A stretch of 64,000 nt of DNA from Clostridia bacterium (GTDB taxonomy: Bacteria; Bacillota; Clostridia; Christensenellales; SZUA-584): NCBI GenBank assembly GCA_018648645.1, contig JABGQS010000001.1, positions 1 through 64,000 of the forward strand, read 5' to 3'. The notes beneath the pieces are model-generated. The model saw only the letters and a list, made by a program, of their open reading frames with translations. It was not told where the DNA came from and ran no database searches. Made by a program: the position numbers and the translations under genes. Shown in pieces: positions 41,546 through 46,043 of the stretch (positions within the stretch are counted from its first letter, which is position 1; each line of letters begins with the position of its first letter).

Positions 41546-43711
41546 TTATTCTTCTGCGGTTTCGTGTTTTATATCTGCGCGTATGCTGATGTTGCGCAGG
41601 GTGGGAATGGTATCAAACTTGATTATGTATGACGCATTCTCGCTGTCGTAAGCGATGACTTCGCCGGCGCCCATGATGGTATGAACGACGCGGTCGCCCA
41701 CCGTAAAGCTGGGACCGTTTGCCATAACCTCGAGCATTTTCTCGCTGTTGGTGATGTTCCAGCCGGATTCGGACACGAGGGAGCCAGGAAGCTCGTTAGT
41801 ATATGTAAGCAGGGTTTTGTCTATGTTGAAGATGAACCGCGAAGGGTAGCGATATGAGCCGTCGAGGTTGCGCCCTTCTGCGTCGGTGAGAAAAAGCGAT
41901 TTTTGTGCGCGGGTGATTGCGACGAATGCGAGTCGGCGCTCTTCCTCCATGTTTTCGAGCGTCGAGGTTTTCTTGGAAGGGAACACGCCTTCCTCGAGAC
42001 TGCAAACGAAAACGTGCGGGAACTCGAGACCTTTGGCAGCGTGTACCGTCATCAGCTTGACGCTGTTCTTCTGCGAGGCGGCGTCTGTGTTTGTCATCAG
42101 CGCGACGCGGGAGAGGTAGCTGGAGAGAGTGCTTTCCTCGCCGCAGGTGGTCTCATATTCGTAGACCGATTGCTTAAGCTCTGCCAGATTGTCGAGACGG
42201 TCTTGACTGCCTTGCGTGCGCAGCATCTGCTCGTATCCGCTTTCGTCGAGCAGCGCGCTGAGGCGTTCGGAAATGGGGGCTTCCTGATCCTCGTTGCTAA
42301 AGCGCTCGATCAGCTCCAGAAACTGTCGCGCCTTGGTGCCTTTGAAGATGTCGTTGTCGATTGCGCGCTCTAGCGCGGTATACATCGAGCATCGGTTTTG
42401 CTCGGAGTACTCTGTCAGGAAAGCGATTCTGCGCTCGCCGATGTTGCGCTTGGGGGTGTTGACCACGCGCAGGAACGACAAGTCGTCCTTGAACTCGATG
42501 AGTCGCAGATAGGACAGCGTGTCTTTGATTTCCTTTCGCCCGAAGAACTGCACACCGCTGTAGATGGTGTAGGGCAGCTGCTCTTTGAGGAACACATCCT
42601 CGAGCACGCGGGTCACGAAATGCGCGCGATACAGTATGGTGATGTCGTGTAGAGGTATATCTTGGTCGGCAAGCTGCTTGATTTGCGACACAATCCATTT
42701 AGCCTCTGCCTGCGATGTTTTTGCGTGGTGGTAGATGGCATCGGTGCCATCCGGCAACAGTGCGATTAAGTCCTTTTTGATGCGGTTCTTGTTGGTACTA
42801 ATCAGTGAGTTTGCGACCGCGATAATCTGCGGCGTTGAGCGATAGTTGTCCATCATCTTGATTGTTTTCACATCGGGAAACGTTTTGTCGAAATCGAGGA
42901 TATATTTGATACTGGCACCGCGCCAAGTGTATATGGTTTGGTCGGGGTCGCCCACGATAAACAGGTTGTTGTGGTATGCGCACAGAACCTTCATCAGCTT
43001 GAACTGCAGCTCGTCGATGTCCTGATACTCGTCTACCATGATGTACTGGAGGCGCTGTTGCCATTTTGTTTTAATGGCATCGTTGACGCTGAAGATGTAT
43101 AGCACGAACTTAATGAGGTCGTTGTAATCGAGACCAAAGCACTTTTTCTGCTGGTATAGATAGCCCCAGAATATGATGTCGTCGCTAGACTGCGCATCAA
43201 GATACTTTTGGTGCAGCTCGCCGAGAGTCATAGCAATCAAGTGCTCGTAGTAGGTCGGGTTCTGTTTCAGCTTGCGGATTTCGATCATGTCACGCGCTTT
43301 GGCGAATGTCATGTGGCGCAGGGTTAGGTCGCGCTCTTCATAAACGATTTTGAGCATGGCGTCGATGTCGCTGTTGTCGAGAACGAGAAAGTTCTTTGGG
43401 TATTGCACGGAGTTGATGTCCTCTTGCAGCACGGTGACGCAAAAGCTGTGGAATGTGCTGATATAGCCCGTGTCGTTGTCGCCCGTAAGCGCACGGATAC
43501 GCTGGCGCATTTCGTTGGCCGACTTGTTGGTGAAGGTGACGCACAGGATGCCCGAGGGCATGATGCCGATTTCGTTGACGAGATAAGCAAAGCGATGCGA
43601 AAGCGCGCGCGTCTTGCCCGAGCCCGCACCCGCGATGACACGGATGAAGCCTTCGGTGGATGTGACAGCCTTGCGCTGCTGCTCGTTTAGCTCTTTTAGA
43701 ATATCCAGCAT
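41546..43711 (-). CDS. pcrA: UvrD/PcrA-family ATP-dependent DNA helicase
   Basis: LNEQQRKAVTSTEGFIRVIAGAGSGKTRALSHRFAYL, VDEYQDIDELQFKLM, GDPDQTIYTWRGA, TVHAAKGLEFPHVFVCSLEEGVFPS; C-terminal GDRVVHTIMGAGEVIAYD. Confidence 0.94.
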   Translation of the reverse strand: MLDILKELNEQQRKAVTSTEGFIRVIAGAGSGKTRALSHRFAYLVNEIGIMPSGILCVTFTNKSANEMRQRIRALTGDNDTGYISTFHSFCVTVLQEDINSVQYPKNFLVLDNSDIDAMLKIVYEERDLTLRHMTFAKARDMIEIRKLKQNPTYYEHLIAMTLGELHQKYLDAQSSDDIIFWGYLYQQKKCFGLDYNDLIKFVLYIFSVNDAIKTKWQQRLQYIMVDEYQDIDELQFKLMKVLCAYHNNLFIVGDPDQTIYTWRGASIKYILDFDKTFPDVKTIKMMDNYRSTPQIIAVANSLISTNKNRIKKDLIALLPDGTDAIYHHAKTSQAEAKWIVSQIKQLADQDIPLHDITILYRAHFVTRVLEDVFLKEQLPYTIYSGVQFFGRKEIKDTLSYLRLIEFKDDLSFLRVVNTPKRNIGERRIAFLTEYSEQNRCSMYTALERAIDNDIFKGTKARQFLELIERFSNEDQEAPISERLSALLDESGYEQMLRTQGSQDRLDNLAELKQSVYEYETTCGEESTLSSYLSRVALMTNTDAASQKNSVKLMTVHAAKGLEFPHVFVCSLEEGVFPSKKTSTLENMEEERRLAFVAITRAQKSLFLTDAEGRNLDGSYRYPSRFIFNIDKTLLTYTNELPGSLVSESGWNITNSEKMLEVMANGPSFTVGDRVVHTIMGAGEVIAYDSENASYIIKFDTIPTLRNISIRADIKHETAEE

Positions 43712-43875
43712 GTTGGTACACCGCCTTAAAACGACTATATCATATAGTATAGGCGCTTTCCAGTCCCAAAAAAGGGACGGGGGGAAGCGGGGTGGTTTAA
43801 TGGTAGATTTTTGGTCAGGTTATTGATATAATGGGATTAGATTTAGGTTAAGATAATATTTCTTTAGGAGCACAT

Positions 43876-45540
43876 ATGGGCAGACTTGAAAGTAACCGTG
43901 GTTATTTGTGTCAAGGAGTAGTCTCAATATTTAGTTCTATTTTAGAAAACGATTGGGATGGCATAAGTGTTAAATATGCAGCTGAAAGGGACAAAGTTGA
44001 CATAGCCCTCATTTATTCTGATGGTACTTTAAATAAAGCGGTCCAAGTAAGATCATCAATAAACGTATTTAGCAAGGATGATGTTCTTTCTTGGATTAAC
44101 GAAATAATGAATGATATAGATGCTCTTGAATATAATCTAATTATAATTGGGGAATGTAAAAAGAAAGCCAGCGCATTTATTGAATCTATAACAAAGTTCT
44201 ATTCTTTAAATATGGATAATGAAGCAAAGAGAAGTATTGCCGGTTTTGAAAGTGCTTTATCCCGCAATATGATAAGAATAACTGTACTGCCTTATGATGC
44301 AGATACATTATTTAGAGAAGTTAGTGACTCCGTTTATCGTTTTGCTTCATATAAGGATTTCTTAGTTGATCATCCAACCCTAGAGCAATTATCATATGCG
44401 CTGGTTTCATTGCCTATACTTTTTGGGACAAAAGGAGAAAATGTACGTAAAACGGATTATGAGAATAAAATTTTTAGGTGGTTAGAACATACGGTGAACA
44501 ATGAAACGGCGAGAACGGACACTTTTTCTGATTTGGATTTATTGGCTTATGATGGAATAGAAGAAGAGTTTAAGAAGAGTTTTCATGCTTACCATTTGTC
44601 TGATTTATCCTCATTTAAACTATATAAGGAGAAGCTGCTATCCGATGGCAAAGAACTAATAGATAAGATAAACTCGATGAAAATGAAATCCTTTGATCTA
44701 CAGATAGCCGACCATACTGATAATACTAAATCAGCAGATACAGATAAGATAAGCTTAGCGAAGGCATTTCAGTTTAAAAAAGCAGAACTTATCGATGATG
44801 AGCAAATAGATTACAAAGCAAGTATAAAGGAGTATTGGGGCATTGAAGTTAAAACCAGTTTTTTTCATGTTGGAAACCTGATACAAGAAAATATATTGAA
44901 TACCAGGATTGTGTATGAGGGAACTGATGTTGAAAAGGAAAAGCACAATTTGATAAATGTTTTGCTGTTTAACTATATTTTTATACTGAAAAGTATTGAC
45001 CATTTGTCCAAAGGAATGCAGCAGGTGCTATTCCTGCAATTAACAGTAGCGAATACAGCGAATATATCAGACAGTAATATTACGATAACGATTCCATCAA
45101 AAACAAATGATTATTGCTTGTTTGATTTTGATAGGGATTTAAGCAGCGATAATAAAGAAATGCTTGATGTAATGGCAGATATCTGGATTGAGAAAAAGAT
45201 TATTGGTACGCTCTTCGGGCAAAAGGCAAATTCGCAGGTTGGCACAGACGCTGATGAAAGTGTTTACGACAACCCACTGTTGATGCCGACATTTTTAGGA
45301 AATGCACCAAAGAAGAATCTGGAAGATATAAAAAAAGAAATAGCGTTATATCAAGCGGAAGAGAGTTCTGCCGGATTCGTAGAATATGATTTTAGCTCTA
45401 TACGTCCGGACGAATCTTTATGGCTGGAACCTTGGATGATGATATTACCAAGCACCAATGAATTTGAAATTCGCTACTCAATTCTTTCAGATGCCTTAGG
45501 CGGTAAGAAAGAGGGAGAGCTAGTGGTATCCGTTGAATAA
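43876..45540 (+). CDS. Uncharacterised 554-aa protein; putative restriction-endonuclease-like (PD-(D/E)XK) N-terminal domain
   Basis: RBS TAGGAG, ATG 43876. N-terminus GYLCQGVVSIFSSILENDWDGISVKYAAERDKVDIALIYSDGTLNKAVQVRSSINVFSKDDVLSWINEI resembles the E..DKVDI...G....QVKSS...F...DV..W pattern of defence-associated nucleases; family not established. Confidence 0.7.
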   Translation: MGRLESNRGYLCQGVVSIFSSILENDWDGISVKYAAERDKVDIALIYSDGTLNKAVQVRSSINVFSKDDVLSWINEIMNDIDALEYNLIIIGECKKKASAFIESITKFYSLNMDNEAKRSIAGFESALSRNMIRITVLPYDADTLFREVSDSVYRFASYKDFLVDHPTLEQLSYALVSLPILFGTKGENVRKTDYENKIFRWLEHTVNNETARTDTFSDLDLLAYDGIEEEFKKSFHAYHLSDLSSFKLYKEKLLSDGKELIDKINSMKMKSFDLQIADHTDNTKSADTDKISLAKAFQFKKAELIDDEQIDYKASIKEYWGIEVKTSFFHVGNLIQENILNTRIVYEGTDVEKEKHNLINVLLFNYIFILKSIDHLSKGMQQVLFLQLTVANTANISDSNITITIPSKTNDYCLFDFDRDLSSDNKEMLDVMADIWIEKKIIGTLFGQKANSQVGTDADESVYDNPLLMPTFLGNAPKKNLEDIKKEIALYQAEESSAGFVEYDFSSIRPDESLWLEPWMMILPSTNEFEIRYSILSDALGGKKEGELVVSVE

Positions 45541-45569
45541 CTATTAGTGAATACCTACACAACATATAA

Positions 45570-45600
45570 AGAAGCCTCCGCAATATAGGAGGCTTTTTTT
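45570..45600 (+). terminator. Rho-independent terminator
   Basis: agaagcctccgcaatataggaggcttttttt. Confidence 0.88.
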
Positions 45601-45651
45601 CTACCTAAAACAGCGATTTCACAATAAAATAAAAAAATTAATAATAAATAC

Positions 45652-45681
45652 TTGACAATAGTGTATGGCATACAGTATAAT
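45652..45681 (+). promoter_or_regulatory. padR promoter with embedded palindromic operator
   Basis: TTGACA 45652-45657, TATAAT 45676-45681 (18-bp spacer); TGTATG-g-CATACA at 45662-45674 inside the spacer. Confidence 0.75.
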
Positions 45682-45698
45682 GAGCACGAGGTGAGAAG

Positions 45699-46043
45699 AT
45701 GAGTGATAATAACGAGATTAAAACGAACTTATTCCTGGAGCTGAGACGGGGCACGATTACACTGTGTGTGCTGAGCCAGCTGACAGAGCCAAAGTACGGA
45801 TACGCGCTGGTGGAGACGCTGGACGAAAAAGGAATGCGCGTGGAACCCGGGACGCTGTATCCGCTGCTGAGAAGGCTGGAGAAGCAGGGGCTGTTGAAAA
45901 GCGAGTGGGAGACCACGGGCAGCAAACCGCGCAAGTATTACGTGCTTAGCGAAATGGGAGAGCAAGTGTATCTGGCGCTGACAGCAGAGTGGGGACAGAT
46001 GCGCGAAACGATTGATACGTTAACGAATGAGGAGGCAAAGTAA
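45699..46043 (+). CDS. PadR family transcriptional regulator
   Basis: LRRGTITLCVLSQLTEPKYGYALVETLDEKGMRVEPGTLYPLLRRLEKQGLLKSEWETTGSKPRKYYVLSEMG. Confidence 0.95.
   Translation: MSDNNEIKTNLFLELRRGTITLCVLSQLTEPKYGYALVETLDEKGMRVEPGTLYPLLRRLEKQGLLKSEWETTGSKPRKYYVLSEMGEQVYLALTAEWGQMRETIDTLTNEEAK

What the first reader, a model, noticed from the sequence alone, without database searches (positions are those of the whole stretch)
43876..45540. AT-rich 554-aa gene with a putative, possibly altered, PD-(D/E)XK-like N-terminus: candidate defence or nuclease effector
Seen: a single ORF with a good RBS, its own terminator and no close resemblance to a housekeeping family I can name. It is clearly AT-rich against its neighbours (one 60-nt line counted at 44221: 22/60 G+C; one at 43501 in adjacent pcrA: 37/60), suggesting horizontal acquisition. 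The N-terminus ..GYLCQGVVSIFSSIL..VKYAAERDKVDIALIYSDGTLNKAVQVRSSINVFSKDDVLSWINEI.. has the layout of restriction-endonuclease-fold domains in standalone defence proteins (E..DDVDI..dG....QVKSS...F...D...W), as in DUF4297/Cap4-like or Mrr-like nucleases. The expected QxK lysine is Arg (QVRSS), so it may be a divergent or inactive nuclease fold. The remaining ~450 aa have no motif I recognise. It sits beside pcrA and near addAB, a recombination-gene neighbourhood.
Basis: partly seen in the sequence, partly recalled or inferred. Interest (0 to 1): 0.75.

Follow-up and report, generated by a model that had tools for sequence, protein, structure and literature searches.

The report
Phage-defence nuclease with altered active site
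This is a foreign-looking, single-gene bacterial defence protein that joins a DNA-cutting domain of the Cap4 type, apparently disabled in this copy by changes at its active site, to an undescribed C-terminal module that other bacteria attach to different killing domains.

Summary
The ORF is real: 554 codons at 43876-45540, 34.9% G+C against 49.0 +/- 2.6% for 1181 equal-sized stretches elsewhere in the window, none as low. Residues 1-193 are a Cap4-type PD-(D/E)xK nuclease: PADLOC Cap4 effector profile E=2.5e-48, HHalign to true Cap4s E=2e-62, and all 12 confident Foldseek PDB hits are Cap4. The C-terminal ~360 residues are not SAVED and match no curated family. A profile of them finds the same module fused to a DUF4062 (TIR-like NADase) domain in five loci and, in one damaged copy, to a possible TIR-like domain. 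Relatives are rare (about 1% of genomes searched); most sit beside known defence genes: Gabija and Nhi, type I R-M, GmrSD, Fic. The K-to-R change is real: K59 is Lys in all 20 compared relatives, and the equivalent AbpA Lys is essential (PMC10732053). An invariant Glu is also Lys here (E33K). Best reading: a horizontally acquired solo abortive-infection effector of undescribed architecture, with an intact C-terminal module but a probably crippled nuclease.

The parts
43876..45540 (+). 554-aa gene, Cap4-type nuclease fused to an undescribed C-terminal module
   Evidence: full-length homologues
43866..43870 (+). Shine-Dalgarno AGGAG
   Evidence: read from sequence
43876..44454 (+). residues 1-193: PD-(D/E)xK nuclease domain of Cap4 type
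   Evidence: PADLOC PDLC00735 E=2.5e-48 over residues 1-208; hhalign E=2.3e-62; Foldseek top 12 all Cap4
43972..43974 (+). codon 33 AAA (Lys) where all 20 compared relatives have Glu
43999..44001 (+). codon 42, Asp equivalent to the catalytic Asp of Cap4 and AbpA (retained)
   Evidence: alignments; role from PMC10732053
44044..44046 (+). codon 57, Gln of the QxK motif (retained)
   Evidence: AbpA Q58 is the equivalent
44050..44052 (+). codon 59 AGA (Arg) where all 20 compared relatives have the catalytic Lys
   Evidence: the equivalent AbpA K60A abolishes T4 defence
44455..45537 (+). residues 194-554: C-terminal module shared with DUF4062 proteins; helical part followed by a predicted beta-sandwich
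   Evidence: profile searches; model, Foldseek
45572..45601 (+). terminator-like stem-loop with T-run
   Evidence: read from sequence; the scan reports the same stem on the minus strand only

Best explanation
The gene is a horizontally acquired, single-gene phage-defence (abortive-infection) effector. Its N-terminal Cap4-type nuclease belongs to a family that cuts DNA, and its C-terminal module senses infection or drives the assembly that switches the nuclease on. By analogy with Cap4, Avs3, DUF4297-HerA and Swarozyc, activation would be by ligand-induced dimerisation or higher assembly of the N-terminal domains. Shown here: nuclease homology, sharing of the module between effector types, mobile and defence-rich contexts, and loss of K59 and E33 in this copy. 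Inferred: that the module is the sensor, what it senses, the abortive outcome, and that this copy is catalytically impaired and so either a decaying gene or one kept for a non-catalytic role.
For: Nuclease. Module on nuclease and on DUF4062 proteins; DUF4062 proteins with another C-terminal domain are proven anti-phage NADases (PMC13174449). Contexts with defence genes: L033 between Gabija (GajA E=1.6e-207, GajB E=1.2e-136) and Nhi (E=1e-181); L053 right after HsdR-HsdM-HsdS; L002 after type I R-M; L036 near HsdR; L045 before HsdM; L038 after GmrSD at a conjugative region; L007 right after a Fic gene of candidate defence family PDC-S04; L034 near a methylase and S subunit. Patchy: 5/399, 6/391 and 2/83 genomes. 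Atypical G+C. Active-site loss: the window deviates at 4 of 13 columns invariant in 20 relatives; those 20 have 3 deviations in 183 (Fisher p about 4e-4, ignoring phylogeny and computed after looking). Essentiality of the Lys: PMC10732053.
Against: No experiment on this family was found. The sensor role of the C-terminal module is by analogy. Defence context was counted by hand on about a dozen loci, without a formal background. L006 and L008 show no known defence gene nearby, L003 and L035 only suggestive neighbours. R59 might still support weak activity, and an assembly or strain error cannot be excluded (one draft genome, no reads).
Confidence: 0.75

Rival explanations
1. It is an orphan Cap4, the effector of a CBASS system that lost its cyclase and responds to a cyclic oligonucleotide.
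For: The N-terminal domain is that of Cap4.
Against: The C-terminal module has no detectable relation to SAVED (hhalign probability 0.1; no Pfam SAVED hit, while the true Cap4 L005 scores 4e-43). No SMODS nucleotidyltransferase in the genome, nor noticed beside the full-length relatives.
Confidence: 0.04
2. This copy is a decaying gene in all but reading frame: the family is a defence system, but this allele has lost catalysis recently and is drifting.
For: K59R, E33K, G3R and Y12C at positions otherwise fixed or nearly so, each one transition away from a common codon for the usual residue; damaged copies elsewhere: L009 truncated, L021 cut off beside an IS-like element, L047 with stops.
Against: Frame, start, ribosome site and C-terminal module are all intact over 554 codons; unique deviations in the C-terminal module are no more than in L008.
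Confidence: 0.4
3. The nuclease domain was inactivated but the protein is kept for binding: a decoy, regulator or sensor acting without cleavage.
For: Intact ORF with intact C-terminal module and its own ribosome site.
Against: No relative with the same substitutions exists in the data, so there is no sign of selection for the dead form.
Confidence: 0.15
4. An active nuclease that tolerates Arg in place of Lys.
For: Arg keeps the charge; D42 and Q57 are present.
Against: K60A in AbpA abolishes defence (PMC10732053), Lys is invariant in 20 relatives of several architectures, and E33 is reversed in charge too.
Confidence: 0.2

Closest known systems
Cap4 (CBASS effector; PADLOC PDLC00735, PDB 6vm5/6vm6/6wam/6wan)
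   Same: N-terminal nuclease domain, 34% identity over 192 columns by profile alignment; predicted fold
   Different: No SAVED domain, no CD-NTase, catalytic Lys and an invariant Glu lost
Swarozyc (DUF4062 TIR-like NADase plus AUX domain, PMC13174449)
   Same: Single-protein layout of effector plus C-terminal auxiliary domain; DUF4062 domains occur on the same C-terminal module as the window protein (L035, L036, L038, L045, L053) and keep an SGTEEE motif
   Different: Window protein carries a nuclease, not DUF4062; two plasmid-borne DUF4062 proteins of 333 and 368 aa do not match the module; the published AUX is a winged-helix-like domain
DUF4297-HerA and AbpAB (Cap4-type nuclease with ATPase or helicase partner)
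   Same: Cap4-type nuclease at the N-terminus of a two-domain protein
   Different: No HerA or helicase partner beside the gene in the window, and none shared among its relatives
Avs-like STAND proteins with Cap4 nuclease
   Same: Same nuclease module at the N-terminus (L020, L023, L024, L025, L027)
   Different: The window protein has no NTPase domain (no Pfam hit)
Lamassu LmuA
   Same: Cap4-related nuclease; PADLOC LmuA profile weakly matches the related Cap4 L005
   Different: Window protein does not match LmuA and no LmuB-like SMC gene adjoins it

Membership tests
PD-(D/E)xK nuclease, Cap4 type | homologous core fold | tested here: met
PD-(D/E)xK nuclease, Cap4 type | catalytic Asp | tested here: met
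   D42
PD-(D/E)xK nuclease, Cap4 type | (E/Q)xK lysine | tested here: not met
   R59; Lys in all 20 relatives
PD-(D/E)xK nuclease, Cap4 type | DNA cleavage | not testable with these tools
   needs purified protein
Cap4 / CBASS | C-terminal SAVED domain | tested here: not met
Cap4 / CBASS | CD-NTase partner | tested here: not met
   no SMODS match in the genome, 95% complete; none among neighbouring ORFs
Swarozyc | N-terminal DUF4062 | tested here: not met
Swarozyc | AUX domain that binds phage portal | tested here: inconclusive
   no match to two other DUF4062 proteins; KpSwz itself was not at hand
Avs / STAND | P-loop NTPase | tested here: not met
   no Pfam match
Lamassu (LmuA) | LmuA match and LmuB partner | tested here: not met
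DUF4297-HerA | adjacent HerA ATPase | tested here: not met
   neighbours are pcrA upstream and a PadR-type regulator with a membrane protein downstream, judged by reading the ORFs

The most novel reading that the evidence does not exclude
The C-terminal ~330-residue module is an undescribed infection-sensing and activation domain that is swapped among unrelated killers (Cap4-type nuclease, DUF4062 NADase, perhaps TIR), defining a new family of single-gene defence systems in Bacillota in the way that SAVED defines a family of CBASS effectors.
Probability: 0.55. Interest if true: 0.7.

Novelty: new variant of a known kind. Interest (0 to 1): 0.5.

Why it matters
If the module is a sensor, its trigger is unknown and directly testable with intact homologues in E. 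coli or Bacillus; DUF4062 and nuclease versions of the same sensor would allow the trigger to be separated from the killing. None of the libraries searched (Pfam, NCBIfam, PADLOC, PDB sequences) holds a match to the module, so such genes are annotated as hypothetical. The window copy is a natural example of active-site loss in a defence nuclease.

Tried and rejected
Pfam and NCBIfam gave nothing for the window protein; PDB sequence searches gave nothing significant for the protein, the module profile or the nuclease profile, so structure comparison carries the PDB link. IMG/VR scans found no viral relative and phage records none. An alignment of ten modules was too diverse for a pattern scan. 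Foldseek of the module alone gave only Ig-like beta-sandwich folds (complement, TEP1, integrin) with query TM about 0.2, so no functional inference is drawn; the viral library gave nothing usable. An insertion-site comparison failed because relatives do not share the pcrA-PadR order; the longest shared flanking word is 10 nt, as expected by chance. A recalled resemblance of the module's end to AlbA_2-type proteins was not borne out by tblastn in plasmids. A repeat of the phylum search with a richer profile found no new locus.

Full report
Observation. The ORF at 43876-45540 is intact, 554 codons, with AGGAG upstream. Its G+C of 34.9% lies below all 1181 equal-length stretches elsewhere in the window (mean 49.0%, sd 2.6, minimum 42.2%). 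The low G+C extends from about 43800 to 45700, i.e. the gene plus its intergenic flanks. The next gene (PadR type) has its own perfect sigma-70-like promoter at 45652-45681, so the gene appears to stand alone.

N-terminal domain. Pfam and NCBIfam give nothing, but PADLOC's profile PDLC00735 (effector, endonuclease) matches residues 1-208 at E=2.5e-48. A true Cap4 with this nuclease domain and a SAVED domain, L005, matches the same profile over its full length at 7e-270 and Pfam SAVED at 4e-43. Profile-profile alignment of nine domains of the window family with five Cap4 nuclease domains gives E=2e-62, 34% identity. An AlphaFold2 model (mean pLDDT 70.7, nuclease part mostly 80-90) has as its only Foldseek PDB hits below 1e-3 twelve Cap4 chains, aligned over 212-236 columns.

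Active site. In AbpA, D45, Q58 and K60 correspond to D50, E67 and K69 that Cap4 needs for cleavage, and Q58A or K60A abolish T4 defence (PMC10732053). The window has D42, Q57 and R59 in these places. In an alignment with 20 other nuclease domains, taken from relatives with the same C-terminal module, from Cap4s, from STAND-like proteins and from a membrane-associated protein, K59 is Lys and E33 is Glu in every one. The window deviates at 4 of 13 otherwise invariant columns (G3R, E33K, K59R, L90I); the other 20 deviate 3 times in 183. The pattern used to fetch most of these relatives allowed Lys or Arg at this place. The Fisher p of about 4e-4 ignores relatedness and was computed after seeing the data. 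E33 is not among the residues whose role is given in the papers read, so its importance is inferred from invariance alone.

C-terminal module. Full-length relatives share 23-36% identity with the window protein. A profile built only from the part after residue 193 finds four further genomes in the phylum sample. In L033 and L034 the N-terminus is again the nuclease, but in L035 and L036 it is a DUF4062-like domain (Pfam E about 0.002, below the curated cut-off; PADLOC PDC-S60 matches the N-terminus of L035 at 6e-23). L045, L038 (Aerococcus) and L053 show the same arrangement. In L047 a damaged module follows a possible TIR-like sequence; the Pfam support is weak (E=0.08). DUF4062 has recently been shown to be a TIR-like NADase that, with its own auxiliary domain, senses a phage portal and causes abortive infection (Swarozyc, PMC13174449). 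The DUF4062 domains on this module keep an SGTEEE motif near residues 93-102, close to the position of the reported catalytic E97 of KpSwz; the equivalence is inferred from position, since KpSwz was not aligned. The module does not resemble SAVED or the C-termini of two other DUF4062 proteins. A model of the module alone (pLDDT 70, pTM 0.62) shows helices and a C-terminal beta-sandwich; Foldseek finds only generic Ig-like folds.

Context. L033 lies between Gabija (GajA, GajB) and Nhi; L053 follows HsdR-M-S; L002 follows a type I R-M operon; L036 lies near HsdR; L045 precedes HsdM; L038 follows a GmrSD gene at the edge of a conjugative region; L007 follows a Fic gene of candidate defence family PDC-S04; L034 lies near a methylase and S subunit. 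L008 follows a tyrosine integrase. Eight of about twelve loci thus have a known or candidate defence gene close by; no background set was run. The module is patchy: 5 of 399, 6 of 391 and 2 of 83 genomes, query genomes included, and it is absent from the four other family genomes. No partner gene is common to the relatives, so the protein probably acts alone.

Mechanism. Sharing of one module by at least two unrelated kinds of executioner, in mobile and defence-rich places, is best explained if the module detects infection or assembles the effector. Precedents are Avs3 and DUF4297-HerA, whose nuclease domains are activated by dimerisation within an assembly (PMC11291478), and Swarozyc. What it detects is unknown. 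In this copy loss of the catalytic lysine and of an invariant glutamate makes cleavage unlikely; whether the gene is decaying or kept for another role cannot be told from one sequence.

Verdict. The family is an undescribed architecture built from a known nuclease; the window copy is probably not an active nuclease.

Noticed in passing
L016 4042-5487, L017 8660-10105, L018 4346-5320: Same Cap4-type nuclease domain fused to a C-terminal part with hydrophobic, membrane-like stretches in Lachnospiraceae-type genomes; another architecture of the nuclease module.
   Followed up: partly
L020 3263-6337, L023 9980-12628, L025 1362-4772: Three nuclease plus NTPase plus TPR-repeat proteins on separate contigs of one Lachnospiraceae MAG (RUG12161), with highly repetitive, near-identical TPR units: several Avs-like genes in one genome.
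   Followed up: no
L021 10001-10237: A relative of the window gene broken after about 55 codons next to an IS3-like transposase fragment.
   Followed up: no
L002 8199-9428: A HEPN-like protein (Pfam HEPN E=0.003, below cut-off) just upstream of the Mesobacillus relative, no PADLOC match; possible further defence gene.
   Followed up: no
L003 11915-12949: SMEK-domain protein directly downstream of the Priestia relative, and an AAA ATPase fragment upstream.
   Followed up: partly
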